A DNA stretch of 64,000 nt, taken from the NCBI GenBank assembly GCA_003131315.1, contig PKUV01000154.1, positions 67,582 to 131,581 on the forward strand, in the 5' to 3' direction. A model generated the notes under the pieces. The model saw only the letters and a list, made by a program, of their open reading frames with translations. It did not search any database and was not told the origin of the DNA. Shown here piece by piece: positions 1 to 47,732 of this stretch. The DNA is from Acidobacteriaceae bacterium (lineage in GTDB: Bacteria > Acidobacteriota > Terriglobia > Terriglobales > Acidobacteriaceae). The position numbers and the translations under genes are program-made. Numbering within the stretch: the first letter of the stretch is position 1; each line of letters starts with the position of its first letter.

Positions 1-2415
1 GTGACGTTCACGCCGCTGACCCAGTACCCGGCCAGCACGCAGATGGGTATGTACATATACGGACTGACAGACGAGGCGGGCAATCCGGCCTATTGCTGCG
101 GATGGACGTTTACGACTACGACCACCGCGGACCACACCGCCCCGACGGTGACCATCACACCCACGAACGGCACCGCCAACGCCGGCCTGAACACGCAAGT
201 CGTGCTGACGTTCTCGAAGTCCATTAACCCGGCGACGATCACTGCCAGCAGCGTCAACCTGCTGAATGGCGACGTGCCGATCAACCCGGCCACCTCCATC
301 TCTCGCGACAACCGCACCGTCGTCCTTAACTACAACGGCGGAACGCTGCCCGCGGGCGCCACCCTCACCGTCACGGCTACACACCTGATTACCGACCTTT
401 CCGGGAACGCGCTGGCCGACACAACCAGCCAGTTCACCACCACGCCGGCGGTTCTGACCTCGGCGCCGACTGTGATCAGCATGCGTCCCGGCAACGGCGC
501 GACCAATGTTCCCACCAGCACGGTCATCACCCTGTTTACCAGCGCTCCCATGAATAGCAGCACGATCAGCGGAGCTCTGCACATTTCACAAAACGGAGTG
601 GTGATCTCAGGCACCACCAATGTAGGCAGCAACGGGCAGAGCATCGAATTCACGCCCAGCTCGGCCCTTAGCGCCGGCACGCCGATTGGGGTCTTCCTCG
701 ACTCGACGGCGCAGGACACTTACGGCAATTACCTGTCGTCCTTCTCCGGGTCGTTCACCACGGCAGGGTCTCCAACGAACACGGCGGCCGTCGTGCAGGC
801 GGTCAACCCGTTCCCGAGCGCCACCAATGTGCCGCTGAACACCATCATCCAGTTGGAGTACAACCAGCCACTGCTGGCCAGCACGATCAACAGCACGAAC
901 GTGGTGCTCTACCAGTACAGCACGGGAACCTACCTGACCCCGACGTTGTCGCTGGTGGGCGGCGGCCAGGTAATTAACATCGCTCCCACGAGCAACCTGG
1001 TTGCCGGATCGCAGTACTTCGCGTACGTCAGTTACGGCGGCAACGTGACCAACACCGACGGCGTGGCGGTGCAGGCCTACGAGTTGAACTTCACGGCGGG
1101 CACGACGACGGATACCGCCGCGCCCACCATTTCGTCGATCGCTCCTCCGGACACGGCCGCCAACATCGGGACCAACGCCGGCGTCAGCGTGAACTTCAAC
1201 AAGGCCATCAACCCGGTGTCGGTCACCGGCAGTTCCATCCAGTTGAGTGGGGGTTCGGTCACTGAGGTGCCGTCGAGCATCAGCTTCACGCCCGATTACA
1301 CCCGCACCATGATTATTCCGCAGGCTCCACTGCCCTCGAGCACGTCGATGACGATCGCCATCAGCGGCGTCACCAGCGAGGCTGGAGTGTCCGTCGCCAG
1401 CAAGACCACCCATTTCACCACCATGTTGGGCGCCGATTTCAGCGCACCCTACGTGATCAATGCCAGCGTGGCCAGCAGCCAGTACGTAGGCACGAACGCT
1501 GCCTTCGCTATGCAGTTCAACAAGCCGATGGATCCGGGCTCCGTCAATCCAGCGGGCGCACAGGACGGGTACCTCTACGACTACACCTTAGGCTACGTGG
1601 CTACCACCATCAGCTTCAGTGCGGATCTAACCACGGTCTTTCTGAAGCCAACGGCCAACCTCACGGCGAGCCATCAGTTCTACCTCTGCAGCTACTACAT
1701 GACGGACCTCTCGGGGAACCCGCAGAACAACTTCTGCGTGTACTTCTACTCGGGTACCGGGACCGACACGACCGGACCGGTCGTGCAGCAGGTCAGTCCG
1801 CCGAGCGGCTTCACGGGCGTGGGCATCAATGCGCCCGTGCAGATCCTGTTCAACGAGCCCATCTCCGGCGCTTCCATCGGAGGCGTGACGTTGAAGCAGG
1901 GCAGCTCGGTCATTCCAACCACCACCACGCTGTACGACGGCGACCAGGGCATCCAACTGCGGCCGTTGGTGCCGCTGGCCACCGGCACGGTGTACACCAT
2001 CAACGTGACGGGAGTCATAGACATTACCGGCAACACTCAGTCCAGCTTCCCGTCCCAGTCGTTCACCACGGGAACGGGAACGGATCTGACCACGGGCACG
2101 GTGGTGTCGACGAACCCGACGAACGGTCAGACGAACGTTCCGGTGGCCACCACGGTCCAAGTGGTGTTCAGCAAAGCGATGGATCCGGCCTCGTTCGACG
2201 TGAACAACAGCTTCACGCTGCGCGATGCCTCGAACAACGTGGTGCCCGCGACCCTCACCTTCTCCGCGGACTTCAAAACCGTCACGCTGCAACCCAAGTC
2301 GAACCTGACCGGAAGCGGCGCAACGTACTACATGGAGATCGGCTACCAGGCCTCCTTGTATGACATCGCTGGAAACGTGCTGAGCTACGGCTACATCTCG
2401 TTCACCACCCACTGA
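1..2415 (+). CDS. Large protein of repeated bacterial Ig-like (SbsA Ig / Big_5-like) domains, 5' end probably outside the window
   Basis: Repeated ~110-aa units with the pattern 'P.NG.TNVP....V...FSK.MDP.S......L......V....SFS.D..TV.L.P...L'; open from base 1; stop at 2415 followed by a strong hairpin. Confidence 0.85.
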   Translation: MTFTPLTQYPASTQMGMYIYGLTDEAGNPAYCCGWTFTTTTTADHTAPTVTITPTNGTANAGLNTQVVLTFSKSINPATITASSVNLLNGDVPINPATSISRDNRTVVLNYNGGTLPAGATLTVTATHLITDLSGNALADTTSQFTTTPAVLTSAPTVISMRPGNGATNVPTSTVITLFTSAPMNSSTISGALHISQNGVVISGTTNVGSNGQSIEFTPSSALSAGTPIGVFLDSTAQDTYGNYLSSFSGSFTTAGSPTNTAAVVQAVNPFPSATNVPLNTIIQLEYNQPLLASTINSTNVVLYQYSTGTYLTPTLSLVGGGQVINIAPTSNLVAGSQYFAYVSYGGNVTNTDGVAVQAYELNFTAGTTTDTAAPTISSIAPPDTAANIGTNAGVSVNFNKAINPVSVTGSSIQLSGGSVTEVPSSISFTPDYTRTMIIPQAPLPSSTSMTIAISGVTSEAGVSVASKTTHFTTMLGADFSAPYVINASVASSQYVGTNAAFAMQFNKPMDPGSVNPAGAQDGYLYDYTLGYVATTISFSADLTTVFLKPTANLTASHQFYLCSYYMTDLSGNPQNNFCVYFYSGTGTDTTGPVVQQVSPPSGFTGVGINAPVQILFNEPISGASIGGVTLKQGSSVIPTTTTLYDGDQGIQLRPLVPLATGTVYTINVTGVIDITGNTQSSFPSQSFTTGTGTDLTTGTVVSTNPTNGQTNVPVATTVQVVFSKAMDPASFDVNNSFTLRDASNNVVPATLTFSADFKTVTLQPKSNLTGSGATYYMEIGYQASLYDIAGNVLSYGYISFTTH

Positions 2416-2461
2416 GGCCGCACGGGGACGTACGCGAGCTGTAACTGACCTGCAAGCTGGA

Positions 2462-2495
2462 GCGGGTTCCGGGATCGACAGATCCCGGAACCCGC
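2462..2495 (+). terminator. Perfect 15-bp stem hairpin (GCGGGTTCCGGGATC-GACA-GATCCCGGAACCCGC) after the Ig-domain gene
   Basis: Direct reading of a perfect inverted repeat with a 4-nt loop. Confidence 0.75.
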
Positions 2496-2577
2496 GATTT
2501 GTCTATGAGCTCGGCCGTTCTGGCGAACGGCGTCCAGCACTCCGGTAACTTTTCGTAACATATTGATAGCAAATAGT

Positions 2578-2674
2578 GGAAGCGCATGCGGTCCGGTGAT
2601 CGTCCCGGTCTTCAAAACCGGCGGGCGGCATCTTCGATGTTGCCGGTGTGTTCGACTCACACACGCTTCCGCCA
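2578..2674 (+). tRNA. selC: tRNA-Sec (anticodon TCA)
   Basis: GGAAGCG...CGCTTCC GCCA acceptor; conserved TCCGGTGA D-arm; CCGGT-CTTCAAA-ACCGG anticodon arm; long variable arm; GTGTG-TTCGACT-CACAC T-arm. Same layout as E. coli selC. Confidence 0.93.
2651..2674 (+). repeat. att-like 24-bp direct repeat, copy 1 (inside the tRNA-Sec 3' end): TTCGACTCACACACGCTTCCGCCA
   Basis: Identical to 11792..11815; adjacent to the integrase gene. Confidence 0.9.
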
Positions 2675-2685
2675 AAACAAAGGAC

Positions 2686-3819
2686 TTAACTAGCCGTGCG
2701 ATCTGTTCGCGATCCGTTAAGAGCTAACCCTGCCACCTTTGAGCTTGCGACGGCCATTTCATCGGTCACAACACCGCCGTAAACATTCATCGTTGTGCGA
2801 ATGTCCGCGTGCCGCATGAGCTTTTGTTGCACGGCTATCGGAGTTCCCACAGCGTCTAGCCATGAACGGTACGTATGCCTCATGCTGTGCGTGCTGACGT
2901 GCACGATTCCAGCGGCAGATGCGGCTTTCTGGTACGCATCGTTAACGCTGTCGGCTGACCAAGGCAGACGACCTAGCTGCGTTGGGGAAGCGAAAATCCA
3001 ATCCTCTCGCGCGAAGAACTGAGTCGTTTGCTTCCATAGCTTGAGCGTGTCGAGCATGGGTTGGCTGACGGTGATCGCCTCGTTTGAGGTTTCGGTTTTC
3101 ACGTCATCTATTCGCTGTCGAACGATACCGCGTTCTATGCCGAGTTTCCCTTCGAGCCAATCCACGTCCGACCACCGCAGTGCAAGGCACTCGCTGATTC
3201 GCAAACCGAAGCACACGCATACGAGGGCAATTGTGCGGAATGGTTCTCCAAGGTGAACGATGAACCGCTGAAACTCATCCACAGTCAAACTGCGTGGTTT
3301 GCTAGTTCGTTTCGACGCTCCTTTGATCGTGACCAGTTCCATCGGGTTTCGCTGAGTCGGCACGTCACCGCGCCACATGGCAAAATCCCACAGGATGCGA
3401 AGCAATCCGCGAACGGCTGCTCTACTCCGGGGTGTCAGTTCGAGAGATTTGAGCCACAATTCAGCAGGACGCGCCTGCACGCCTTTGATCTCAGAACCAC
3501 CCCACTTCGGGATAATGTGATTCTTCAGCCATGATTCATACGATCTTCGCGTGCTGTAGCGTTGCGGCATCTTCTCTGCTCTGTATTGTTCGACCAGCGT
3601 GCCCACTGTAATTACTCCCACGGTGCTCAAGTTCGGTTCCGGCAGTGAGTCTTGGAAAGATTGCGCTACTCGCCAAGCTGCCCCCTTAGTTAGACATTCT
3701 GCCAAGGTGGCGATTTGTTTCGAGCGGCGTTTTCCTTCTTCCCACCACAGGAAATTCCAAGTTTTCCTTCTTTTATCAAAGACCACACTACCCGTTTTGT
3801 GCCGTGCTGCCCTTTTCAT
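2686..3819 (-). CDS. Tyrosine recombinase / phage-type integrase
   Basis: Motifs GLRISECLALRWSDVDW, HSMRHTYRSWL, KLMRHADIRTTMNVY (R...HxxR...H...Y). Start taken at MKRAARHK (3819), ATGA overlap with the upstream HTH gene; the ORF-track start at 4098 is probably spurious. Confidence 0.92.
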   Translation of the reverse strand: MKRAARHKTGSVVFDKRRKTWNFLWWEEGKRRSKQIATLAECLTKGAAWRVAQSFQDSLPEPNLSTVGVITVGTLVEQYRAEKMPQRYSTRRSYESWLKNHIIPKWGGSEIKGVQARPAELWLKSLELTPRSRAAVRGLLRILWDFAMWRGDVPTQRNPMELVTIKGASKRTSKPRSLTVDEFQRFIVHLGEPFRTIALVCVCFGLRISECLALRWSDVDWLEGKLGIERGIVRQRIDDVKTETSNEAITVSQPMLDTLKLWKQTTQFFAREDWIFASPTQLGRLPWSADSVNDAYQKAASAAGIVHVSTHSMRHTYRSWLDAVGTPIAVQQKLMRHADIRTTMNVYGGVVTDEMAVASSKVAGLALNGSRTDRTAS

Positions 3820-4058
3820 TGACCCATCCTTTCCGCAGGGCGCACGGATGGCGGAATGGATGGTAGCACGGAGGATTCCAGAAGGGCAGCATCTAAGTCC
3901 AGTTGACGGAACCGCCACACTCGGCGCTTTGTGCCCGAGAGTGCAAAGGCTTTCATTTTGCCTTGCCTTACCCAGAGCAACAATGTACGAGGTTTGATCT
4001 TCAGGTAGTTCGCTGCCTCCGTTACCGTTAGCCATTCCGATTGAATGATTGTCTTCAT
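3816..4058 (-). CDS. Excisionase / helix-turn-helix DNA-binding protein
   Basis: SEWLTVTEAANYLKIKPRTLLLWVRQGKMKAFALSGTKRRVWRFRQLDLDAAL: MerR/Xis-type HTH_17 pattern; 4-bp overlap with the integrase. Confidence 0.85.
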   Translation of the reverse strand: MKTIIQSEWLTVTEAANYLKIKPRTLLLWVRQGKMKAFALSGTKRRVWRFRQLDLDAALLESSVLPSIPPSVRPAERMGQ

Positions 4059-4228
4059 TGCGTGATGTCGGTCTTATGCGTTCATTCCGTGTTGCCAAAA
4101 TTGATCTTGTTGGGAATCACTGTCCTGCCTGTTATCAAGACCGTTCTTGTCTTCACTTAGGGCAAGGAGCAGAAAAAGGCCTGCCGCTACTCCAAACACG
4201 ACTAGAATTGCTCCTATAACCGTGATTC

Positions 4229-4594
4229 TCATTGTGTCTGCTCCCACGGGACAATTGCGTCGCAGTTCTTCTTCGGACAGCGAAAGCCTTTCAAGCCGCC
4301 GTCGAATACGCTTGTCTTAATGAGCTTCGGTTCGGCCCAAAACTCGTGGCCGCACTGAGGGCACGCGAGGCGATAAAGGCGTTCCATTTCTCGCAGCCGG
4401 GTAAGCAGGCCCTCGTTGTTGGTGTGTTGGAGCAGGCGGCGGAATTCCTCAATTCCCGCAGGCCCTCGCACGAACACTTGCACGCCGCAGGGGTCGCAAA
4501 TCAGATAGGGTTTGTCCTTTTTTGTAATCCTAACTTCCCGCGCCTGCGTACATACGGGACAAGGAAACATCGGCTTGCCGTTGACAGCTACCAT
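4229..4594 (-). CDS. Zinc-ribbon protein of unknown function
   Basis: CPVC...CDPCG, CPQCGHEFW, CPKKNC cysteine pairs; lies inside the island. Confidence 0.7.
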   Translation of the reverse strand: MVAVNGKPMFPCPVCTQAREVRITKKDKPYLICDPCGVQVFVRGPAGIEEFRRLLQHTNNEGLLTRLREMERLYRLACPQCGHEFWAEPKLIKTSVFDGGLKGFRCPKKNCDAIVPWEQTQ

Positions 4595-4680
4595 CGACCT
4601 AACACCTCCGCAATAACCTTCCGCATGACGCAGAAAGTCCGTGTCCGGCTCCCACTATAAGGGCATTTTTCGGTTCCATC

Positions 4681-5340
4681 TTGAATCAGCCTGACGCGAA
4701 CAGCGCACATGGATTGTCACGCTCCGTTGAATTGGGGAGCTTTTGCCGGAAATCTTCCGTAAAATTAAGGTCGGTTTTTCGAATAGCTTCCGCAAAAATG
4801 CAAAAGCGCAACAGAAGCACAAAAAAACTTGCAATTCCTCTTGACAGGTTTTCCCGGAAACGGGGCAGAGGACGCCCGCCAAGAGTGCGCGCTACCGAGA
4901 TTCGAGGCCGTGCGGATAACTACCGATTCATTTTTGGGCAGGTCTGGGACCGTCTCTGGCCTAGACTATCGCTGGCGATGACGGATCAAGAAGTGATCGA
5001 TGCGTTCTTGGAGGGTGCGAGCCCCTACGCCCAAGAGTTTGTACCCGCTTTGGCAAGCCTAATCTCTCGTGTGCTACGCGAGCCAAAGTTTCCAAAACGA
5101 CCGGAAGCGCAGATCAACTTCTTGGCAGATTCTTTAGCTGGGCTCGGCTATGTCGCTCCGCGCAGTTCCCGCGATATTTGCCAAAAAGAAAGAGCGCGTG
5201 AGAAGCGCACCCACCACATTATCCGGTTTGAAGTTTATGTCGAATGTTCCTGCGGATTCAAAGGGCGATCCCGCAATCACACTTGTCCGCATTGCGGAGC
5301 GAAAATCGATTTCGGTTTTCTTGATTTGAGGTCCCTTTGA
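4681..5340 (+). CDS. Hypothetical protein with AT-hook-like RKRGRGRPP motif and C-terminal zinc ribbon
   Basis: RKRGRGRPPRVR segment; CSCGFKGRSRNHTCPHCGAKID C-terminus; divergent from the zinc-ribbon gene at 4594. N-terminal start uncertain. Confidence 0.65.
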   Translation: MNQPDANSAHGLSRSVELGSFCRKSSVKLRSVFRIASAKMQKRNRSTKKLAIPLDRFSRKRGRGRPPRVRATEIRGRADNYRFIFGQVWDRLWPRLSLAMTDQEVIDAFLEGASPYAQEFVPALASLISRVLREPKFPKRPEAQINFLADSLAGLGYVAPRSSRDICQKERAREKRTHHIIRFEVYVECSCGFKGRSRNHTCPHCGAKIDFGFLDLRSL

Positions 5341-5884
5341 ATTGAAGAATCGTAAAATTGCCCTTTATTGACGACTGCGTAACGTACGTGCGTAACGTTA
5401 GGGAAGAGCCCTTCTCGACGGCCTTGGGGTGTTTTTGCGTTTGACAACCTGATTGGGCCCACCAGCGATCATCTCATTTGGCAGGTGAAACGGGCTTGGC
5501 ATTCTAGGGGTGCCAATTCAGAAGGTCATTCGCTTGAGGGGGATAGCTATATAGAAGGGAAACCTGCTACACCGGGGCGAACCATGATCACAGCACTCTT
5601 CGGTGTGATCCTGCATACGTTCGGGTACGACATCGGGTACGTTTGCGGTTGACATCCACAGCGTCAGCAACTACAGTCACGCGTAATCAGCGATTCGGGA
5701 TTCGCCGGGGGGGCGACGGATTCTCAGCTCCGTCAGTGATCCTAATAGCTGCTTCCCTTGAAGTGTGAATGGGTTGCGCCAGCGAGTTGTTGGCGGCAGC
5801 CCGAGTGCGGACAAGTAGTCGCATGGGTAACCCCAGCGCAAGCCGGTGGGAACCAGTCTGTTCATTTCGTCAGGAGGATGCTAA

Positions 5885-8800
5885 ATGCCCTGTCTCATAG
5901 CTTTTTCGTCCCCGCCAAACTCTTCTCGGACCCTCGGCTTGATCTACCGCTATGCCGCGGCACTGTTGCTGCTCGGCTCTACGGTCCTCTGGGGACAAGC
6001 TGGCAGACCAGCGGACATACCGATGGATGACCACGCTTTCGACTCCGTAAACCTTCTAAACCTTAACGTGCTCGTCCATGCCCCGGTGTTCAGGAAGGCG
6101 GGGCCTGTGCCCGTCTCTATCGACTGGTCGGCGAACTCATATTGTACTGGCACGACAGGAACGTGGCAGTGTGGCGCACAATCGCCGACGGTAGCAAACT
6201 TCGGAGCCATCGCTGCTAATAGATTCATGGGCGGCCCAACAAACGTTGGTTGGGCTACCGCTTACCCTTTGGTTGTCAATGTTAGTCAGTGCCCAGATAA
6301 GACCTCTCACTATGTATACAACTCGTGGGTACTAAGAGAAGCCAACGGCACTCTGCACGCGCTCCCACCCAATGACTGGTCTGCCGCTGGTGGAGACGAC
6401 ACGTGTTTAAACCAAGGGTTTACAGACAAGACGATTGACGGATCTGGTTTTACGGTCACTGTAGGCATGGGTATCGGCGCTGTTGGGCCTATTATCAGTG
6501 CAGGCGGAACAAGGATTAATCAAGCGTATCCCTCTGCTACGTTCATTACCAATGCCACTGGAAATAGCGTGTCTATAAACAGCACGCAGTACATCGACAC
6601 GCTGGGGGTTGTTGCGGCAACGGCTTCACCTAACGTGAACGCTCCAACGTCTGTTTCATGGACTGATGTCAATGGCGGGAGTCCGCATGTGACTGTTAAC
6701 ACCAGCAACGTTAAGTTCCAAACTAACTTCGGCTGCACTGGCTTCGGCGGTCCAGTGATTGCCGAAGTGCCAGCCGGGAGTTTAGCCCCGCAGTTCAGCG
6801 GGCTGAGTTACCCTGATGGGTCGAGCCTCAGTGTGACGTATGAGGACACTTATGGGATGACCGGGTACGTGACAGGCCGGATCAAGACGCTGACGATCCC
6901 AACCGGGGGTCAGGTGACGTACACATATGGCGGCGTGAACTGCTTTAACGGGTCGTTCGACACTTTGAGCAGGGTGACGAGCGATGGGACGACGAGCTAC
7001 TCAGTGACGCCCGCTGGGACAGGCTACGGCGCCACCACGACGGTGACGGACCCGGGCGGGAACAAGAGCGTGTACCAGTTCTCCAAGCCGTCAACGAATG
7101 GATATGTCGTGCTGACGATGATGCAGGTGTACAAGGGGACCAGTACGCTTCTAAAGCAAGTCAACTATTGCTACAACAGTGATACCACGCACTGTACGGC
7201 CAGCACGTCACCGTATGCGATCGTGTCGTTTCCGATCACCCAGGAGACTGTCTACACCACGCCGAATGGATCGTCAATGACGCGGGAAAGTGCCTACACG
7301 TTCGATTTCTACGGCAACAAGCTGACGGATGCCGAGTACGACTTTGGAGCTGGGAGCCCGACCAGCACGACAACGATTGCGTATGGGAGCTGGAACGGGT
7401 CGAACTGCATTGCAGTATCCTCGACGATCCAAAACAAGCCCTGCACGACAATCACGACGATGGGGGCGAACAATGTCGCGCAGTCTCGGTTCACTTACGA
7501 CGGGAACGGGAACCTGACTAAGACCTACAAGTGGAACGGCTCGGCTTGGCTGAGTAACACGACGGCAAACACTTATAACACGAACGGGACTATCTCCTCT
7601 TTCTACGACCTTGCCAATAATCCCGCCACCTACGCTTATAACGGTACGGGAGGGTGCAATGGCCTGTTCCCGACTTCCGTCACGTCCGGCGGACTGACAA
7701 CCTACGACACCTGGGACTGCACCGGGGGAGTCATCAAGACGCGGAAGGACGCAAACGGGAACACGACGACGTACGGATATGCGAACATCTCGGGGACTGC
7801 GGAGCCGTTCTGGCGGGTCAGCTCGGTGACTGATCCGTTGAGTAATGAGGCGTGGCAGACCTACACGGCGAACAGTCAGACCGGGCTACTGACGTTCAAC
7901 TCGTCGTTGTCAGTAGCGAATCCGACTGGGCTGGTTGACAGCTACGGCTTTGCAGTTCGGAATCAGGTAAGGGAAGGACCAAGCGCGAGCAATTATGACA
8001 CAGTGTCGAGTGCCTATGGCTGGTCTGGGAATTATCGCCAGATGCAGAGCACGATGCCATGCGCGGTGGCCAGCGGCTCGGATTGCTCGTTCTCTTCGGG
8101 CGTGACGACCAAGTTGCTCGACCCGCTCGGTCGCCCTTACACGATGACGGATGGCGGGGGAGGCGTCGATACCTTCACCTACGCGCAGAATGACGTACTG
8201 AGCGTGCTCGGACCGGCACCGTCGTTTGACGGCGAGAATACGAAGGGAAGCCAGAACGAGTTTGATGGTCTGGGGCGAATCAAGTCGAAGTGTGACATTC
8301 TGTCGAGCGGTGGGACAAATTGCGGGCAGGCGAGTGGCTCGTACTCGGGCGTGCTGACGAGTTACTTGTATTCGTCAGCATCTGGGAGCCAGACGACTAC
8401 GGCGACCAGGGGATCGCAGGTAAGAACAAAAGTGTTCGATGCTCTCGGGCGCGTAACAGCGGTGACGATTCCGGAGGGTGGTACAACACATTACTACTAC
8501 GATTCTTCCTACGGCTCGTGCCCGTCAGGATACACGGGAGCGACCGGGCAGTTGGAGGCCGCAGTCGATCCGAATGGGAACGTTCTGTGCTACAAGTACG
8601 ACTCGCTGAATCGGGTGACGGGAGTGAATGCGAACGGGACGGCCTGCCGGTTGTTTTATTACGATAACTCAACTGGGTTCAGCGGAACCATCCCGGCTGG
8701 CATCACTATCAGCAACAAATACGGAAAAATGGTCGAGGCCGCGACAAGTAACTGCTCGACTACGCTCATAACGGATGAATGGTTCAGCTACGACGCGAAT

Positions 8801-10672
8801 GGCCGTATCGCTGACATGTGGGAGAAGACGCCGAACTCTGGTTCTTCCTACTACCACTCGACGACGACCTACGCCGGGAACGGTGCTGTCGCCTCAGTCA
8901 ATCTGATTGGGCAATACACCGCGACATTCGGGCTGGATGGCGAGGGGCGGCAGAACGCGCTTAACCTCGGCGCTAGTAACACGATCACGGCGTCAACATT
9001 TAACGCGGCGAATCAACTCACGGAGATGGACTTCGGCTCTGGTTCGGACAAGGATAAGTACACCTACGACGGGACCACCGGACGGATGACCGCGTGGGAG
9101 TTCGACGTGGGGACTCAGAGCGAGACGGCTAGCCTGAGCTGGAATCCTATCGGGACCCTCAAGGAGTTATCTATCACCGACGGCTTCAACTCCGGTGGCA
9201 CGCAGGACTGCAAGTACGGGACGACGACCAATAAGGGATACGACGACCTGAATCGGCTGATCTACGACGACTGCGGATCGGGCGGATGGGGTCAGTCGTT
9301 CTCCTACGATCAATACGACAATCTGACGAAGGCTGTCGTCTCCGGCAGGACGGGGGTCGCGTGGAATCCTGGCTACAGCTCCTCGACTAATCACGTAACC
9401 GGGGTAACGTACGACTCGAACGGCGACATCACCAATGATACGTTCCACGCGCACGAGTGGAACGAGTTCGGGAAGCTGAAGAGCGTGGATCGGAGCGGGA
9501 CGGGCTGTGCGACAAGTGGGACGTGTCTGATTTATGACGCACTCGGGCGGGAGGTCGAGTTCGACAGTGGCTTGACCAAGACGGAGATATGGATGACGCC
9601 GTTCGGAGTCGCGTACATGAACGGACCCAGCTATCTCTATGCCTACTGGACGCTCTCGCCGGGGAATAGCACCGTGCTTCACCTCAGCGGCGGAACCATC
9701 CAGTATCACCACAAGGACTGGCTCGGGAGTTCCCGCGTCAGCTCACTCGGCGGCACGACGATTATTGATGATCGAGCATTCGCTCCCTACGGAGAACTCT
9801 ACGACAACTTCGGCACGACCAACGCGAACGAGCTGATCTTCACCGGGAACACGGCGAATACGGTGGGAGGATGGCTCTACGACACGCCGAATCGTAATTT
9901 GAATCCTTCTCAGGGCCGGTGGCTCTCACCTGATCCTGCTGGCTCTGGATGGAACCAGTATGCTTACGGAACTAATCCGAATATTGAAATTGATCCGACA
10001 GGGTTGAACGTGATGCATGGTTGTTTTCCTCCCTGCGATGGAGGCGATGGGGGATTGACTCCAAGCTCAGGGCCACTCAGCTGGGGAGACAATTGGGACG
10101 GGACGATGTACAGTCCTTGGAACATCTCGTGGAGCAGCTCAGGAGACTTAACAGCTGCGTTACAGCAACTAATGGACAGCATTAACGCCGTAATGATGGC
10201 TCCTTTTAGACCAGCCCTGCAAGCGGTACCATGGGAAATGTTGGACAAAATTATAGCCCTAGTGGAGGCAGTGAATCCGGCCCCGTACACCATCGTAGCC
10301 CTCGGTCTGGCGGGCACCGACAGAACCAGTCTGAAGCAAGCTAATTATTGGGGCTATCAAGTGAGGGATTCGGACTGGAATAAAGTAGGCGAGGTCACTA
10401 TCACGGAAAACCTGCTGCAGATCGAAGACCCGATTAATATAACCCCCCCAAAGGGTAACTCATACTATTCACCAAACGGGTATTTCGTCGATACACTTGG
10501 ATTCACAAACAACGATGGGCCACTCCCCTACGGGGCAATGGAGACCCTGCAAACTTTCGACTTAACAGTAAATGGAGCCACTTACACCAATGTTGGTCCC
10601 ATCAACATTCTAACGATTACCGGGCAGAACGGCACGCTGATCGTGGGACAACCGACAGCTGTGAAACCATAG
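5885..10672 (+). CDS. Secreted YD-repeat / RHS-family protein, 1595 aa
   Basis: Signal-peptide-like N-terminus; repeated YD units (YDGNGNLTK, YDSLNRVTGV, YDALGREVEF); RHS-core ending RWLSPDPAGSGWNQYAYGTNPNIEIDPTGL followed by ~225 aa unrecognised C-terminus. Confidence 0.9.
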   Translation: MPCLIAFSSPPNSSRTLGLIYRYAAALLLLGSTVLWGQAGRPADIPMDDHAFDSVNLLNLNVLVHAPVFRKAGPVPVSIDWSANSYCTGTTGTWQCGAQSPTVANFGAIAANRFMGGPTNVGWATAYPLVVNVSQCPDKTSHYVYNSWVLREANGTLHALPPNDWSAAGGDDTCLNQGFTDKTIDGSGFTVTVGMGIGAVGPIISAGGTRINQAYPSATFITNATGNSVSINSTQYIDTLGVVAATASPNVNAPTSVSWTDVNGGSPHVTVNTSNVKFQTNFGCTGFGGPVIAEVPAGSLAPQFSGLSYPDGSSLSVTYEDTYGMTGYVTGRIKTLTIPTGGQVTYTYGGVNCFNGSFDTLSRVTSDGTTSYSVTPAGTGYGATTTVTDPGGNKSVYQFSKPSTNGYVVLTMMQVYKGTSTLLKQVNYCYNSDTTHCTASTSPYAIVSFPITQETVYTTPNGSSMTRESAYTFDFYGNKLTDAEYDFGAGSPTSTTTIAYGSWNGSNCIAVSSTIQNKPCTTITTMGANNVAQSRFTYDGNGNLTKTYKWNGSAWLSNTTANTYNTNGTISSFYDLANNPATYAYNGTGGCNGLFPTSVTSGGLTTYDTWDCTGGVIKTRKDANGNTTTYGYANISGTAEPFWRVSSVTDPLSNEAWQTYTANSQTGLLTFNSSLSVANPTGLVDSYGFAVRNQVREGPSASNYDTVSSAYGWSGNYRQMQSTMPCAVASGSDCSFSSGVTTKLLDPLGRPYTMTDGGGGVDTFTYAQNDVLSVLGPAPSFDGENTKGSQNEFDGLGRIKSKCDILSSGGTNCGQASGSYSGVLTSYLYSSASGSQTTTATRGSQVRTKVFDALGRVTAVTIPEGGTTHYYYDSSYGSCPSGYTGATGQLEAAVDPNGNVLCYKYDSLNRVTGVNANGTACRLFYYDNSTGFSGTIPAGITISNKYGKMVEAATSNCSTTLITDEWFSYDANGRIADMWEKTPNSGSSYYHSTTTYAGNGAVASVNLIGQYTATFGLDGEGRQNALNLGASNTITASTFNAANQLTEMDFGSGSDKDKYTYDGTTGRMTAWEFDVGTQSETASLSWNPIGTLKELSITDGFNSGGTQDCKYGTTTNKGYDDLNRLIYDDCGSGGWGQSFSYDQYDNLTKAVVSGRTGVAWNPGYSSSTNHVTGVTYDSNGDITNDTFHAHEWNEFGKLKSVDRSGTGCATSGTCLIYDALGREVEFDSGLTKTEIWMTPFGVAYMNGPSYLYAYWTLSPGNSTVLHLSGGTIQYHHKDWLGSSRVSSLGGTTIIDDRAFAPYGELYDNFGTTNANELIFTGNTANTVGGWLYDTPNRNLNPSQGRWLSPDPAGSGWNQYAYGTNPNIEIDPTGLNVMHGCFPPCDGGDGGLTPSSGPLSWGDNWDGTMYSPWNISWSSSGDLTAALQQLMDSINAVMMAPFRPALQAVPWEMLDKIIALVEAVNPAPYTIVALGLAGTDRTSLKQANYWGYQVRDSDWNKVGEVTITENLLQIEDPINITPPKGNSYYSPNGYFVDTLGFTNNDGPLPYGAMETLQTFDLTVNGATYTNVGPINILTITGQNGTLIVGQPTAVKP

Positions 10673-10759
10673 CATCGTCGACGGACGACAAAGTAATGGG
10701 CGGGGGCTAGGGAGTTCGCGAAAACGAAAACGCGCGTAGTCACAAGAGAGGAAGTTACG

Positions 10760-11461
10760 ATGGCAAAGCGTCTGTTTATAGCAGCTCTGGTGTTTGTTCT
10801 GAGTGGCGTTTGCTGGGGACAAGAGCGAGGCGGCGGCGATGCAGATGTGGCGGTACCATTGATAATGAATGTTCTACGCAAAGCTAAGGTTTCGGGATCG
10901 CTGGAATACTGGGGCAATTGCAGCAATATGCGCCAGTTCCCCGATTTTCCTAAGCTCAAAGCTCCTCGGAACGACGTTGGGGCGCCGGTTGAAACGTTGC
11001 GTGAAATGTTCGCAGACGACCCGAAGATGCAGGTCACACAAGAACCAGGCGGCATGATTCGCATGGTGGAAACCGACGTTCCTCAAGACCTTCTGGATCT
11101 GACGATCAAACACATCTCATTCGGCGTCGAGTACGAGAAAACGAATCCGCACACTTTTGACAACCCAGGCAGTACGCTTTGGTTTATTTTGGCCGCGCCC
11201 GAGGTGAAGGCGTTCATGAAAGCCGCAGATATCGGCCTACCCTACGATTCCTTGGGACTCTCAATGGAATTTTCGCCACGCTCGCAACGCATCTCGGGAG
11301 ATCTTCACGAAGTGAATCTCTCGCAAGCGCTAGATTATATGCTTAAGACCTTCCCAGGCCTTTGGACTTATGAGAACTGCCCAAGCCAGAAGAGAAAACG
11401 GGTCGTCTTCTTTGCGGTTTATTCTAGTGGTGATCCGGCCGCTAAGACAAGACAGCACTAA
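10760..11461 (+). CDS. Small secreted protein of unknown function downstream of the YD-repeat gene
   Basis: Clear signal peptide MAKRLFIAALVFVLSGVCWGQ; begins 88 bp after the YD gene; same strand. Confidence 0.65.
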   Translation: MAKRLFIAALVFVLSGVCWGQERGGGDADVAVPLIMNVLRKAKVSGSLEYWGNCSNMRQFPDFPKLKAPRNDVGAPVETLREMFADDPKMQVTQEPGGMIRMVETDVPQDLLDLTIKHISFGVEYEKTNPHTFDNPGSTLWFILAAPEVKAFMKAADIGLPYDSLGLSMEFSPRSQRISGDLHEVNLSQALDYMLKTFPGLWTYENCPSQKRKRVVFFAVYSSGDPAAKTRQH

Positions 11462-11791
11462 CTGGCGGGAGATCGAGTTCGACATCGGTAATCAAACCTT
11501 GTAGCGTTCAGGGTTCGAGCCCTCGCAGTTTCCGCAAGACCGAATGGCTCTGCACGCGAGCCCCGAGAATATCCGTGTGCGAAAGCCCACCCTGTAATTG
11601 TTCGATTCGTCTCTGCCGATTCTGTACCAGTTTTTGCCTCGCACTCATGAGTTTCTCCCGGAAGGAGCGATAGAACGACAGCCGAGCTGAAACGAAAACC
11701 TGCAATCCGTTTGTCTTTCTACCAATGCTTTCCATGCACTTAGGTGCCATCCGTGGTCCTGCATGTTGTTGAATTTACGTTTTCCCGTGGA

Positions 11792-11815
11792 TTCGACTCA
11801 CACACGCTTCCGCCA
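11792..11815 (+). repeat. att-like 24-bp direct repeat, copy 2 (orphan tRNA-Sec 3' end)
   Basis: TTCGACTCACACACGCTTCCGCCA, identical to 2651..2674, with no tRNA body upstream. Confidence 0.9.
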
Positions 11816-11839: not shown

Positions 11840-12367
11840 ATGAAGACCTCATCACTGCTACTCCTGTTCATCGCGCTTTGGATCGTCATGGTTCCAGTCC
11901 GCTCGGGCGCGCAGGCCGCCGAGTGGCACGACGATCTGGTCGATCGCATGACTGGCGTCTGGAAGTTGGAGGGCCAGGTCATGGGCCGCGACGCGCACCA
12001 CGAAGTCCATGCCGAGTGGGTTCTCAACCATCAGTTCCTTCGCATCCACGAAAAAACGGATGCGGGCGCGCCCGGCTCCGAGCACCGGTACGAGGCGGCC
12101 TGGTTTCTCGGCTACGATCCGGTGAGCGAGCGCTACGTGCTGCATCTGCTCGACGTGTTCGGAGCGCGCTTCTCAGAAACGGTCGGCTACGGCACGCGCG
12201 ACGGTAACGCAATCCGCTTTGTCTTTGAATATCCCGACGGCCCGTTCCACACCACCTATCGCTGGTCACCGGAAAAAGACACCTGGCAATGGCTGATGGA
12301 GCAGAAAAACAAAGACGGCAAGTGGACGAATTTCGCCGACCTCAAGCTCACACGGCTGTCGCGTTAG
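11840..12367 (+). CDS. Secreted DUF1579-like / lipocalin-like hypothetical protein
   Basis: Signal peptide; LVDRMTGVWKLEGQVMGRDAHHEVHAEWVLNHQFLRIHE pattern; start reassigned to MKTSS (11840). Confidence 0.65.
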   Translation: MKTSSLLLLFIALWIVMVPVRSGAQAAEWHDDLVDRMTGVWKLEGQVMGRDAHHEVHAEWVLNHQFLRIHEKTDAGAPGSEHRYEAAWFLGYDPVSERYVLHLLDVFGARFSETVGYGTRDGNAIRFVFEYPDGPFHTTYRWSPEKDTWQWLMEQKNKDGKWTNFADLKLTRLSR

Positions 12368-12568: not shown

Positions 12569-14791
12569 TTACCTTCCATGTCTGCCGCCACCGCTACTCC
12601 CGTGCGACGATCCACCGCCACCGTGCGACGATCCGCCACCGCCGTGCGACGATCCGCCGCTCGGCGCCGAATGGCCACCGCTGGGAGCAGAACGTCCGCC
12701 GCCGCCGTAACTCGGGGCCGGGCGTCCGCCGCCGCCGCTGTAGCCGCCGCGATTGCCGCCATAAGAGCCGCCGCCATAAGCACCTCCGCCGGAAGAGCGC
12801 GGAGTGACGATGGGCTGCCTCATATTGAGTGGCGGACGAGAAGATCCGCTGTATCCACGGCCCTCTGAACTATAGCCACGACTTTCTGAACCCGAACTGC
12901 GGGGAGAGCCGTACGAACCGCGGTCTCCTGTGCGGCCCATCGATGGGCCGCCGGACGACTGACCACCCCTGTTTAACCCAGAAGATGAGCGCGGCGCCAT
13001 CGGCGAAAATCTCTGCCAGCCGCCACTGTTGCTGCTGCCACTTCCGCGAGCGGTTGTCGAGCCACCCGAATTGCCTCGCGTTCCCGAACTTTGGTTGAAG
13101 CGCTGGAACCCGCCGTTCGAATTGGTGTTCGAACTGCTATTTCCGGGCCTCGCAACTTCGCGGCTGTTTCCAGTGGACCTGCCATTCGGCGCCGTTGCAG
13201 TGTTACCTCGGGCTGAGAAGAAGTGCTGATTCTGCGACATGTTCCGAGTCGTTGAGGCAGCCGCCGGGCGTCCGCTGGCCGAGAAGCTTCCGCGGCTCGG
13301 ATTCACGGGCAGTTTGCCGGTGGTGAAACGCGCATTCTGGAATGCCGCGTGACTCATCGGCTGAGCGTTCATATGGCCTTTGCCGAACTCGTTGGCCGAG
13401 ACGGTCGTCCCGCCGCGGAAGTTCGCGTCATGCATCGCCAGGTTCACGTTCGAAAATCGCGTGCCGCCGTGCAGCGGAGCAAAGCCGCCGCGGTTGTAAG
13501 CGCCGATACCGGCAACGCCGAAGCGCCCGCCATACCGCCCATACCAGGGATGGAAACGGTCACACGGTCCAAGGGGAAGCCAGCCGATCGAGCCCCAGCC
13601 GCCACCGAAGCCAAATCCGAAACCACCGCCGAAGAACGAAACATAAGCCGGCGCCCATATCGGGCGGTAATAGGGATATCCGTAGGCCGGACCGGGCCAC
13701 CAGGCCCACGATCCGTCGTCCATCATCCAGCGACCGTAGTGATACGGCGCCCAGCCCCAGGGATCATACGAAACCCAAGTCGATCCCCAATAAGGCTCAT
13801 CCACCCAGCGGCCGTCGCGATACGGAGCCCAGCCGGCTTCCACGTTTGGACGCCACACTTGACCGTAATCCGGAACCTCGCTCCAGGTGCCGTGGCCGTC
13901 GAGATCTTCGGCTCCCACGTAGTAGTCGTTGGTGTGTCGCCGCGATACCGCATTGCGGATGACGTTGTCGCGATCGGTGTTCCACTGGTCCCAGTCATCC
14001 CGTGCAGGTGCTTCGCCGATCTTGTATTGTGCCTGATCGCCGGCGCCCTGCACGGTAATGAACTGGCCCTCCCCAACTCGCGTGCCGCCTTGCGGAGTCG
14101 TAATTTCCACTTCGCCTCTGCGGACCAGCACTTCGGTGTGATCGTCGGCAGTCACCAGAACTCGAAAGCTGGATTCGCGGCGACCGGTGCGAATGGCAAC
14201 GTTGGGCGTATCGATTTCGGCGTCTGCATCGCTGTTCTTGAATACGGAGTAGTTCGCCATGCCGCGTCCAAGTTGAATCTGGATTTGCGAGCGCGTGAGC
14301 GAGGTGACGTTGGCCTGCGAATGCTCAGCGAGGCGGAGCATGTTGGCATAGTCGAGCTGAACTTCGGTGCGCGCTTTGTCGCCGGTCGAAACACGGTCAC
14401 CCGCGAGGACGGGAGCATTGATCGCAGCCGCGGACCAGCCGTTGGAGTCGCCACGCTGCGTGGAGACGTCGCCATGAATCAGACTGATGCGCGCCACGCC
14501 GGCGTTTGTTTCAGACGGCGCGCTGGAACTCTGGTTGCCGGGGTATTGGTCGTTGGAGCCTGGTTCCATCGGGCCCTGATTCATCGAACCTTGACTCGTC
14601 GAACCTTGGTCCATCGAATCCTGGTCCATGGAACCCTGGTCGTTGGGACCCTGCATCGGCGCTTGGATGCCCGCCGACGGTTTCGAATATTGATCCGGCG
14701 TCTGGTCGTCCGGGTTCTGCGCGCTGACCGCGCCTGGAATCGCGATCGTCAATCCCAGTCCTAAGATTGCTGCTATTAATTTGAACTTCAT
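12569..14791 (-). CDS. FecR-domain / DUF6600-like protein with Gly/Ser-rich C-terminus
   Basis: Signal peptide, FecR-like VSTGDKARTEVQLDYANMLRLAEHSQANV, WxPYxxGRWV/DPWGWAPYHYGRW repeats, low-complexity GGGGSSHGGGG tail. Confidence 0.8.
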   Translation of the reverse strand: MKFKLIAAILGLGLTIAIPGAVSAQNPDDQTPDQYSKPSAGIQAPMQGPNDQGSMDQDSMDQGSTSQGSMNQGPMEPGSNDQYPGNQSSSAPSETNAGVARISLIHGDVSTQRGDSNGWSAAAINAPVLAGDRVSTGDKARTEVQLDYANMLRLAEHSQANVTSLTRSQIQIQLGRGMANYSVFKNSDADAEIDTPNVAIRTGRRESSFRVLVTADDHTEVLVRRGEVEITTPQGGTRVGEGQFITVQGAGDQAQYKIGEAPARDDWDQWNTDRDNVIRNAVSRRHTNDYYVGAEDLDGHGTWSEVPDYGQVWRPNVEAGWAPYRDGRWVDEPYWGSTWVSYDPWGWAPYHYGRWMMDDGSWAWWPGPAYGYPYYRPIWAPAYVSFFGGGFGFGFGGGWGSIGWLPLGPCDRFHPWYGRYGGRFGVAGIGAYNRGGFAPLHGGTRFSNVNLAMHDANFRGGTTVSANEFGKGHMNAQPMSHAAFQNARFTTGKLPVNPSRGSFSASGRPAAASTTRNMSQNQHFFSARGNTATAPNGRSTGNSREVARPGNSSSNTNSNGGFQRFNQSSGTRGNSGGSTTARGSGSSNSGGWQRFSPMAPRSSSGLNRGGQSSGGPSMGRTGDRGSYGSPRSSGSESRGYSSEGRGYSGSSRPPLNMRQPIVTPRSSGGGAYGGGSYGGNRGGYSGGGGRPAPSYGGGGRSAPSGGHSAPSGGSSHGGGGSSHGGGGSSHGSSGGGRHGR
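14548..14654. repeat. In-frame 15-bp tandem repeats encoding [D/G/S]QGSM-type pentapeptides
   Basis: Protein reads MQGPNDQGSMDQDSMDQGSTSQGSMNQGPMEPGSNDQ. Confidence 0.8.
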
Positions 14792-15040
14792 AGATACCTC
14801 CACCTTGCTCGGGAAAAGAGTTCTGCTTGAAAGAATGCAGGCTGAGTGCCAATGTCGAGCGACCCGCGCAATTTCTTTAATTGCATTGTTTTTAGCAAGT
14901 TAAGAGAGGCAGTGCAACTTGGACAAGCGGCGATTCGCGGGACTCCGGTGGCCCGGTTCCACCAGGGTGGTGGTTTTCGGCCAGGGGCGGTTATTCTAAG
15001 CTGGCGGCGCGTGGGCGGAAACTTGCTGCTTCACGCCGGG

Positions 15041-15541: not shown

Positions 15542-15961
15542 TCATTTTCCGTTGTCTTTTCCAGGAGAGACTAAAGTCACCAACCCTGATCCAAGCATGG
15601 CGTGCATGAGCGCGACTTGCGCAGGCTTGTTTTCCTCTTCCGGGTGATTATCCAGGTAGAGGGAAAAGACTTTTGCCATTTGAATGGGTGTCACGCCATC
15701 CTCGAAGGTGACGGTTTGCAGGAGGCCTTTGTCATCGGAAACCAGCGTACCCTCCACCCCCATTTGCCAGCCGCCCAGATACCCCGCGCACTTACCCGCC
15801 TGGTAAGATTGAAATGGCGTTTGCTGGGGTATAGGGACTTGGAAGTTGGCGATCCATGCGCTACAGGGAACCTTCAGATCAGCAGCGGTCGTCTTAGCAA
15901 TTGCGATCCCTTGCAGTGTGAGCAAGAGTAACAATGGAGCAAACCTCACGTACGTTTTCAT
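15542..15961 (-). CDS. Rap1a/Tai-like immunity-family protein
   Basis: Signal peptide; CAGYLGGW...GVTPIQMAKVFSLYLDNHPEEENKPAQVALMHAM matches the Rap1a family pattern. Confidence 0.6.
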   Translation of the reverse strand: MKTYVRFAPLLLLLTLQGIAIAKTTAADLKVPCSAWIANFQVPIPQQTPFQSYQAGKCAGYLGGWQMGVEGTLVSDDKGLLQTVTFEDGVTPIQMAKVFSLYLDNHPEEENKPAQVALMHAMLGSGLVTLVSPGKDNGK

Positions 15962-21220: not shown

Positions 21221-21559
21221 ATGACAAAGGTCGAAGCGATTATTCAGGTCTCAAAGCTGGATGCCGTAAAAGACGCATTGCACGAGGTTGGCGTCGAAGG
21301 CATGACCGTTTTTGAAGCCAGAGGACATGGCCGGCAAAAAGGACACACCGAGTTTTATCGGGGACGCGAGTACACCGTGGACTTGATCCCGAAGGTGAAG
21401 ATCGAGATCGTGCTGGCCGATGAAATGGTCGAGAAAGTGGTGCAGGCGATCACCACCGCGGCGCGTACGGGCAAGATCGGCGACGGGAAGATTTTTCTTT
21501 CGCGCATTGACGAAGCGATTCGGATTCGCAACGACGAACGTGGCGATAGCGTGCTGTAA
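21221..21559 (+). CDS. glnB: Nitrogen regulatory protein P-II
   Basis: GMTVFEARGHGRQKGHTEFYRGREYTVDLIPKVKIEIV, TGKIGDGKIF: canonical PII with T-loop Tyr. Confidence 0.95.
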   Translation: MTKVEAIIQVSKLDAVKDALHEVGVEGMTVFEARGHGRQKGHTEFYRGREYTVDLIPKVKIEIVLADEMVEKVVQAITTAARTGKIGDGKIFLSRIDEAIRIRNDERGDSVL

Positions 21560-46502: not shown

Positions 46503-46520
46503 TAACTAATTCTTTAGTTG
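46503..46520. promoter_or_regulatory. Putative autoregulatory BlaI-type operator: TAACTAATTCTTTAGTTG
   Basis: Palindrome AACTAA-TTCT-TTAGTT ~45 bp upstream of the blaI start; matches the htrA-upstream site. Confidence 0.6.
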
Positions 46521-46765
46521 CAAGGGAAAAGCCGAGGGTTGCTTCCCGGCTCTGGAGGCATTTCCGCTGGAGCAGTGCCTGCCTCAATTCAACAATCGAA
46601 CTTAGCCCCAAGCGGTAACGTGTTTGGGAGAACTCTCATTCTAGGTGGTCCCGTTTTCGGGGGCTACGTCAGACCCATGCTCAGGCGAAGGGATTTGTCG
46701 ACCACGCCGAAAGCAGCCTCCAGATCGGAACTACTTCGGCCGCGCCGCCACTCGCAGATAGGGCT

Positions 46766-47128
46766 TCAGAGTCTTCCAGCCGCTGGGATATTTTTGTTTG
46801 GCCTGCTCTTCCGAAACCGACGTTGGATCGAGGGATGGCCAGCGCGTTTAAACCCTACTACATTAGTAGAGAATAGAATATCCAGCGGCTGCCAGCTCGT
46901 CAACCGGGGCCAAGCCGGTTCCGGCAGGATGATGGTATCGCATCGGGCCGCTGAGCGATCGCCAGCCTCGAAGTGCACCGTCCCAGCTGCATTTTTGTTC
47001 GCGCCACAAAGCAGGACAATCGGCGTGATAACCATGTCGTCAATGTGCGCGTCGGTGGAAATTGTGTGGAAGTTCTCCGCGGCGAAGTTACGCTCGCCAT
47101 CTAGCGGATCAAAACGCTGCGACAGTCG
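46766..47128 (-). pseudogene. Open frame without a clear start, possible gene remnant
   Basis: Frame reads PRLSQRFDPLDGERNFAAENFHTISTDAHIDDMVITPIVLLCGANKNAAGTVHFEAGDRSAARCDTIILPEPAW; immediate upstream stop. Confidence 0.3.
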
Positions 47129-47303
47129 CGGCTTTCAGCCCGATGGCACGATCTTGCCTTACACCAGAGTGCCATTGGCGAGCGCGCTACTTTACCGGCG
47201 CTGCGTTTCTGTTTAGCATTCAACCTCGCTCGCGGTTCTCAAAAAAAGAAATCAGGTATCGAATTCAGAAAACATTTGTGACGACAGTCTCCCGGTCAGG
47301 CCA

Positions 47304-47732
47304 ATGAAGCCCAAGAAAACGATTCTTTGTGTGGACGATAACGAACAGTCACTCTCCATCCGCAAAATCATGCTTGAAACGCGGGGCTACCGCGTGCTCG
47401 CGTGCAACAGTGGCGAACTGGCACTCGAAGCCTTCCGCCGCGGCGGGGTTGACCTGGTGCTCACCGACCTGATCATGCCCGGTGTGGATGGTTCGCGGCT
47501 GATCGAAGAAATCAAAAGTCTTTCTCCGCAGACTCCGGCTGTGCTGATCTCCGGCCGGACCAAAATCTACGAGCGTGAAACGCTCGCCGATGTTTTTCTC
47601 TCCAAGGGAATGTACGAACCCGCGGATCTACTGGAACGCATTCGCCTGTTGTTGGTGCGCAAGCGCGGCCCCAAGCGTCAGGTTGAACTCCGCGCCCGTG
47701 CGATGGACGTGGAGCATGCGACCGTGGCGTGA
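47304..47732 (+). CDS. Stand-alone response regulator receiver-domain protein
   Basis: ILCVDDNEQSLSIRKIMLETRGYRV...VDLVLTDLIMPGVDG. Confidence 0.88.
   Translation: MKPKKTILCVDDNEQSLSIRKIMLETRGYRVLACNSGELALEAFRRGGVDLVLTDLIMPGVDGSRLIEEIKSLSPQTPAVLISGRTKIYERETLADVFLSKGMYEPADLLERIRLLLVRKRGPKRQVELRARAMDVEHATVA

What the first reader, a model, noticed from the sequence alone, without database searches (positions are those of the whole stretch)
2578..11815. Compact ~9.1 kb integrative element in the 3' end of tRNA-Sec (selC)
The sequence shows an intact tRNA-Sec (2578..2674), an integrase ending 12 bp downstream, and an orphan identical 24-bp copy of the tRNA 3' end (TTCGACTCACACACGCTTCCGCCA) at 11792..11815, 23 bp before the next backbone gene's start codon. 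selC is a classical island target in enterobacteria (established). A tidy att-bounded selC island in what looks like an acidobacterial genome, carrying only integrase/Xis, two Zn-ribbon proteins and a giant YD-repeat protein, may be undescribed. The integrase retains its R...HxxR...H...Y catalytic set, so the element could still be mobile.
Basis: partly seen in the sequence, partly recalled or inferred. Interest (0 to 1): 0.75.

Follow-up and report, generated by a model that had tools for sequence, protein, structure and literature searches.

The report
Mobile DNA island in selenocysteine-tRNA gene
A 9.1-kb mobile DNA island has inserted itself into the end of the selenocysteine-tRNA gene of a soil acidobacterium; it is an ordinary kind of element at a known type of target, but it belongs to an apparently undescribed family of acidobacterial islands that swap tRNA targets and repeatedly carry giant Rhs/YD-repeat proteins.

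Summary
An intact tRNA-Sec (2578-2674) and an exact orphan copy of its last 24 bp (11792-11815) bound a 9,141-bp island. It carries a tyrosine integrase (2686-3819), an excisionase-like protein, two probable Zn-ribbon proteins, a 1,595-aa Rhs/YD-repeat protein and a 233-aa protein, at 54.5% G+C against 59.4% around it. The best proof that 11791/11792 is a real end: a search with the 102 bp to its left, core excluded, hit 13 places in 10 congeners, and every hit runs into an orphan tRNA 3' end (Sec, Ser, Asn, Lys, Val, others). A congener has a sister island at selC (integrase 82%, Xis 90%, ZnA 88%, ZnB 68%, YD 32%). All seven selC integrases form one clade (98/98) inside a family that also uses Ser, Asn, Lys, Val and His tRNA genes. 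One member, on an IMG/VR contig, carries phage packaging and capsid genes. Rhs genes lie next to these integrases more often than chance (3 against 0.18 expected). No strict empty site was found, excision was not tested, and Rhs function is inferred. New member of a known kind (tRNA-targeted genomic island); selC in Acidobacteriota was not found in the held literature.

The parts
2578..2674 (+). tRNA-Sec (selC), intact; the target gene
   Evidence: ARAGORN; Rfam RF01852
2651..2674 (+). attL core: 24-bp tRNA 3' end, T loop to encoded CCA
   Evidence: exact repeat
2675..2730 (.). integrase-side attP arm (AAACAAAGGACTTAACTAGCC...), conserved after selC in integrase-carrying congeners
2686..3819 (-). 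tyrosine integrase, 377 aa (ATG at 3819; the ORF listing over-extends to 4098)
   Evidence: PF00589; phrog_1; alignment A1; tree
3816..4058 (-). HTH_17 excisionase-like protein (Xis/RDF), stop overlaps the integrase start (ATGA)
   Evidence: PF12728; TIGR01764 over its cut-off; phrog_66/2907
4229..4594 (-). ZnA: 121-aa protein with two CxxC pairs (probable Zn ribbons), recurrent gene of these islands
   Evidence: (weak)
4798..5340 (+). ZnB: helical protein with C-terminal CxCG...CxxCG, divergently transcribed from ZnA (ATG about 4798)
5885..10672 (+). Rhs/YD-repeat protein, 1595 aa, Rhs core at 1300-1374 and a 226-aa tail without family match; cargo
   Evidence: PF05593; TIGR03696
10760..11461 (+). 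233-aa protein of unknown function directly downstream of the YD gene; possible immunity or accessory cargo
   Evidence: no family; homologues in 3 congeners, no Rhs seen beside them
11690..11791 (.). distal attP arm; the conserved right end of the element family
11792..11815 (+). attR: displaced 24-bp copy of the selC 3' end
11840..12367 (+). DUF1579 protein, first gene outside the island
   Evidence: PF07617; G002 orthologue preceded by a degenerate selC end
12569..14803 (-). FecR/DUF6600 protein; conserved backbone beyond the island

Best explanation
This is a site-specific genomic island. A circular element with an attP site (distal arm, 24-bp core, integrase-side arm) recombined with the identical 24 bp at the 3' end of selC, through its tyrosine integrase, leaving selC intact (attL) and a displaced 24-bp copy (attR) 9.1 kb away. 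The Xis-like protein, coupled to the integrase gene, probably directs excision. The island belongs to an acidobacterial family whose integrase lineages have each adapted to one tRNA gene while keeping related arms and, in part, a ZnA/ZnB gene pair; the cargo is exchangeable, and here it is a giant Rhs/YD-repeat protein plus a 233-aa companion. Shown by sequence: both ends, family membership, shared target of the sister integrases, sister island, atypical composition. Inferred: circular intermediate, present-day mobility, role of Xis, and any function of the Rhs cargo (most likely a contact-dependent or secreted effector of competition between bacteria).
For: Exact 24-bp repeat, chance about 0. 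The core-free distal arm found 13 places in 10 congeners (own genome included); each continues into an orphan tRNA 3' end: Sec, Ser, Asn, Lys, Val and others. Conserved integrase-side arm after selC. Sister island at selC in G020, about 13.1 kb across two contigs that share exactly 141 bp, ending at an att copy 3.3 kb from the same FecR backbone gene. The seven selC integrases are one clade, support 98/98; all targets need 6 changes on the tree against 13.9 shuffled. G015 tRNA-Ser(gct) island of about 12.2 kb with the same layout. G+C 54.5%, below every other 9.1-kb stretch scanned (minimum 57.4%). Intact integrase and excisionase-type Xis. selB in the genome, so selC is probably in use.
Against: No strict empty site: no congener joins selC directly to DUF1579. 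The bases right after the 24-bp copy match no congener's selC flank. Upstream of selC this genome differs from its congeners, apparently through an inversion, so the left flank is not comparable. No read data for the excised circle. The genome is a draft in 194 contigs.
Confidence: 0.93

Rival explanations
1. Satellite relic: the island is a phage satellite (PICI-like) that lost its replication and packaging genes and now serves as a carrier for Rhs cargo, moved only when a helper phage or sister element supplies functions.
For: Same-target kin carry satellite-type genes: an IMG/VR contig with tRNA-Sec and a 65% integrase has terminase small subunit, head protease and major capsid; the G017 selC island has a CHC2 primase and a terminase-like protein; G015 has Prim-Pol. 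Size and int-xis layout fit.
Against: No primase, terminase or capsid gene in the window island. The direction of change, loss or acquisition, is not shown.
Confidence: 0.35
2. Decayed, immobile island: the element inserted long ago and is fixed; the cargo is now ordinary host DNA.
For: Several relatives keep only integrase fragments beside selC (G002, G003, G009, G014, G032), so decay is common in this family.
Against: Integrase and Xis are full length, catalytic residues are invariant, and both 24-bp copies are identical.
Confidence: 0.25
3. Two stacked events: the integrase module (2675 to about 5400) and the Rhs region (about 5500-11800) arrived separately, the outer att copies being shared.
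For: G020 shares 80% DNA identity only up to about window 5,400, then differs until the right arm; YD proteins are only 32% identical; the selC region seems to accumulate elements in tandem elsewhere (G017).
Against: Conserved right arm and integrase-side arm bound one unit; only two att copies are present; Rhs genes recur in sister islands at other tRNAs.
Confidence: 0.2
4. Not an island: the 24-bp repeat is a chance or gene-conversion copy within native backbone.
For: No strict empty site was found.
Against: The arm search, the sister island and composition all speak against it.
Confidence: 0.02

Closest known systems
tRNA-gene genomic islands as catalogued by Islander/TIGER (PMC4383910, PMC12424338)
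   Same: Intact tRNA at one end, displaced 3' fragment at the other, tyrosine integrase inside, about 10 kb (one of the two size peaks reported)
   Different: No entry for this locus could be looked up here; selC in Acidobacteriota not found in the papers searched
selC islands and prophages of enterobacteria (e.g. selC-site islands of STEC, PMC6174562)
   Same: Same target gene; 3'-end attachment (the latter from general knowledge)
   Different: Integrase shows no match to the arm-binding domain that P4-type integrases carry (that trait from memory; one search shows only PF00589); cargo and host phylum unrelated
PICIs, including those at tRNA-Sec (PMC10111431)
   Same: Int plus AlpA/Xis-like gene, small size, integrase clades unified by attB, tRNA targets including selenocysteine
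   Different: No primase or packaging gene in the window island; att fragment undamaged (24/24), whereas that paper reports damaged fragments for PICIs at selenocysteine tRNA
Rhs/YD-repeat polymorphic toxins (PMC3482391, PMC2935791)
   Same: YD repeats, Rhs-core domain, DPxG motif followed by a variable tail, small gene downstream
   Different: Tail has no recognised toxin domain; immunity function of the downstream gene is not shown

Membership tests
tRNA-targeted genomic island | Intact tRNA gene at one end | tested here: met
tRNA-targeted genomic island | Displaced tRNA 3' fragment at the other end | tested here: met
tRNA-targeted genomic island | Integrase gene inside | tested here: met
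tRNA-targeted genomic island | Sporadic presence with an empty site in relatives | tested here: inconclusive
   Sporadic: yes. Direct selC-DUF1579 join not found; proxy in G002
tRNA-targeted genomic island | Excision and re-integration by its integrase | not testable with these tools
   no reads, no bench
PICI / phage satellite | Primase or replication gene | tested here: not met
   none among window ORFs in Pfam, PHROGs or NCBIfam
PICI / phage satellite | Packaging or capsid-interference gene | tested here: not met
   present only in kin
ICE or IME | Relaxase or conjugation genes | tested here: not met
   no such family among island ORFs
P4-type integrase islands of enterobacteria | Integrase with the P4-type arm-binding domain | tested here: not met
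   only PF00589 matched
Rhs polymorphic toxin | Rhs repeats and Rhs core | tested here: met
   PF05593 31 bits, TIGR03696 45 bits, both over cut-off
Rhs polymorphic toxin | C-terminal toxin domain after DPxG | tested here: inconclusive
   variable 180-228-aa tails in three islands, no family match
Rhs polymorphic toxin | Cognate immunity gene | tested here: inconclusive
   a gene follows directly in three islands (window, G015, G000:C18) but none matches an immunity family

The most novel reading that the evidence does not exclude
A distinct, undescribed family of acidobacterial mobile islands, built on one integrase lineage that keeps its arms while switching the core among tRNA-Sec, Ser, Asn, Lys, Val and His genes, in which satellite-type members with capsid genes and Rhs-carrying members share one attachment site, so that Rhs effector cargo may be spread by phage-satellite machinery.
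Probability: 0.35. Interest if true: 0.6.

Novelty: new member of a known kind. Interest (0 to 1): 0.45.

Why it matters
It extends the selC hotspot, known from enterobacteria, to soil Acidobacteriota, and gives a well-sampled natural series in which one integrase family changes tRNA target while its element ends stay recognisable: a ready data set for the question of how tyrosine integrases switch attachment sites. It also suggests a route by which giant Rhs/YD-repeat genes spread in these abundant but poorly cultured soil bacteria.

Tried and rejected
Empty-site reading of the G017 orphan flank: its match to the selC flanks of G002, G003 and G004 looked like an empty site, but integrase remnants lie beside selC in G002 and G003 and beside the G017 orphan itself, so the shared flank is more likely the integrase-side arm of a second, decayed element; withdrawn. 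Search for a direct selC-DUF1579 join among congeners: none. Single-sequence fold of the 233-aa protein: pLDDT 38, useless; ZnB fold: pLDDT 58, helices only, so no fold search was run. PADLOC: no defence family among the island proteins scanned. Phage and plasmid records: only integrases below 30% identity among the listed matches. Solved structures: YD protein only marginally like an Rhs protein. Literature: no paper on selC islands in Acidobacteria in the held library, which lacks most subscription journals; the large acidobacterial genome comparison PMC5900883 does not mention selC.

Full report
What is there. ARAGORN and Rfam both place tRNA-Sec at 2578-2674. Its last 24 bases recur exactly at 11792-11815; at up to 3 mismatches there is no third copy in the window and none is expected by chance, and a search with the tRNA against the whole 6.0-Mb genome finds only these two places. 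Between the copies lie an integrase (PF00589), an HTH_17/TIGR01764 excisionase-like protein, two CxxC-rich proteins, a 1,595-aa Rhs/YD-repeat protein and a 233-aa protein without family. The island has 54.5% G+C, against 59.4% for the rest and a minimum of 57.4% in other stretches of equal length.

Corrections to the gene calls. Relatives align to the integrase from the ATG at 3819, not the TTG at 4098. That ATG overlaps the Xis stop (ATGA), so the two genes are probably translationally coupled. Int is 377 aa and stops 11 bp from selC; ATG 11840 of DUF1579 is 24 bp past the orphan copy.

Is it an element end? Congeners with orphan copies of the selC 3' end mostly show the same sequence to its left. 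The cleaner test used only window 11690-11791, without the core: 13 matches in 10 of 24 genomes of the genus, own genome included, and in all 13 the matched stretch runs into an orphan tRNA 3' end, of Sec, Ser, Asn, Lys, Val and further tRNAs (tRNA identities of the orphan ends read by eye). The same arm therefore abuts different tRNA ends, as expected of an attP arm whose core was adapted to each target.

Sister islands. In G020 the integrase, Xis, ZnA and ZnB next to selC are 82, 90, 88 and 68% identical. The contig end shares exactly 141 bp with another contig that carries a YD protein (32%), the right arm and the 24-bp copy, with the FecR backbone gene 3.3 kb beyond; joining them gives about 13.1 kb, although an IS3-type transposase gene near the join makes it less than certain. 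In G015 a tRNA-Ser(gct) island of about 12.2 kb has Int, Xis, ZnA, an Rhs protein and the same right arm. In the window's own genome further integrases of the family sit at tRNA-Ser(gct), tRNA-Ser(gga) and a broken tRNA-Asn, and contig C18 carries an Rhs gene and a 90% ZnA copy; its last 22 bp equal the first 22 bp of the two integrase contigs C80 and C2.

Targets and the tree. Twenty-nine integrases with a readable target were put on a maximum-likelihood tree. The seven at selC are one side of a branch with support 98/98; all targets together need 6 changes, one more than the minimum, against 13.9 for shuffled labels. Target choice is thus inherited and switches rarely. Integrases of the wider family occur in 21 of 121 genomes of the bacterial family. 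Named kin are Acidobacteriaceae, Terriglobia and Candidatus Sulfotelmatobacter MAGs, which supports the acidobacterial host.

Links to satellites. An IMG/VR contig with tRNA-Sec and a 65% identical integrase of the same clade encodes a terminase small subunit, a head maturation protease and an HK97-type capsid protein. The G017 selC island has a CHC2 primase and a terminase-like protein, and G015 a Prim-Pol protein near its integrase. The window island has none of these, so it is not filed as a satellite.

Rhs as recurrent cargo. The own genome has only three Rhs-core genes, two of them with ZnA nearby. Across 22 family integrases, 0.18 Rhs genes within 10 kb are expected if placed at random; three are seen on single contigs (window, G015:C12, and a fragment at G010:C243), P about 0.0009; two further cases need contig joins. 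The count was made after the pattern was noticed, so the P value is a guide only. The Rhs tails after DPxG differ fully between islands, as in polymorphic toxins, but no toxin or immunity domain was recognised, so this remains an inference.

Empty site. None was found in the strict sense. FecR and the genes behind it are conserved in the genus, while the stretch between selC or att and FecR varies. In G002 the DUF1579 orthologue is preceded by a degenerate selC end (19/24) with the same 24-nt spacing; matches of 18 or more occurred once in about 510 kb of both-strand background. I first read the G017 flank as an empty site and withdrew that: integrase remnants lie beside the G017 orphan and beside selC in G002 and G003, so it is more likely a second, decayed element in tandem.

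Verdict. An ordinary kind of element, well supported, in an under-studied phylum, belonging to a family that seems undescribed and that is useful for studying integrase target switching.

Noticed in passing
window 2400-2577 and 46518-47732: Genes at 46.5-47.7 kb (and on to 59 kb) lie directly upstream of selC in most congeners, so this genome probably carries an inversion of about 44 kb with one end just upstream of selC.
   Followed up: partly
L180:280-7933: IMG/VR contig 3300036786_000095: capsid-encoding, satellite-like element beside tRNA-Sec with the same integrase clade.
   Followed up: partly
L070/L071 (G004:C82:2677-2715 and 21303-21399), L076 (G011:C8), L080/L081 (G027:C8): Partial selC copies that begin or end near the anticodon (positions 26-39) suggest a second class of selC islands with the anticodon-loop attachment site.
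   Followed up: partly
L165/L227 (G000:C56) and L218 (G017:C267): Distal arm, tRNA 3'-end core and integrase C-terminus lie in a row (attP-like junction); the integrases are partial, so tandem decayed elements are more likely than excised circles.
   Followed up: partly
L207, L208, L209: ZnA homologues, in L207 with ZnB, occur beside more distant integrases at tRNA-Ala and tRNA-Phe, so these genes are not tied to one integrase lineage.
   Followed up: partly
window 15542-15961: A Rap1a-type immunity-like protein (PF18602) lies outside the island between conserved backbone genes.
   Followed up: no
L061, L064, L068, L069, L078: Integrase C-terminal fragments next to selC in five further genomes: repeated colonisation and decay at this site.
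   Followed up: partly
L073/L089 (G015:C18 and C10): The two contig starts share exactly 141 bp, implying a selC element of about 43 kb with Prim-Pol.
   Followed up: partly
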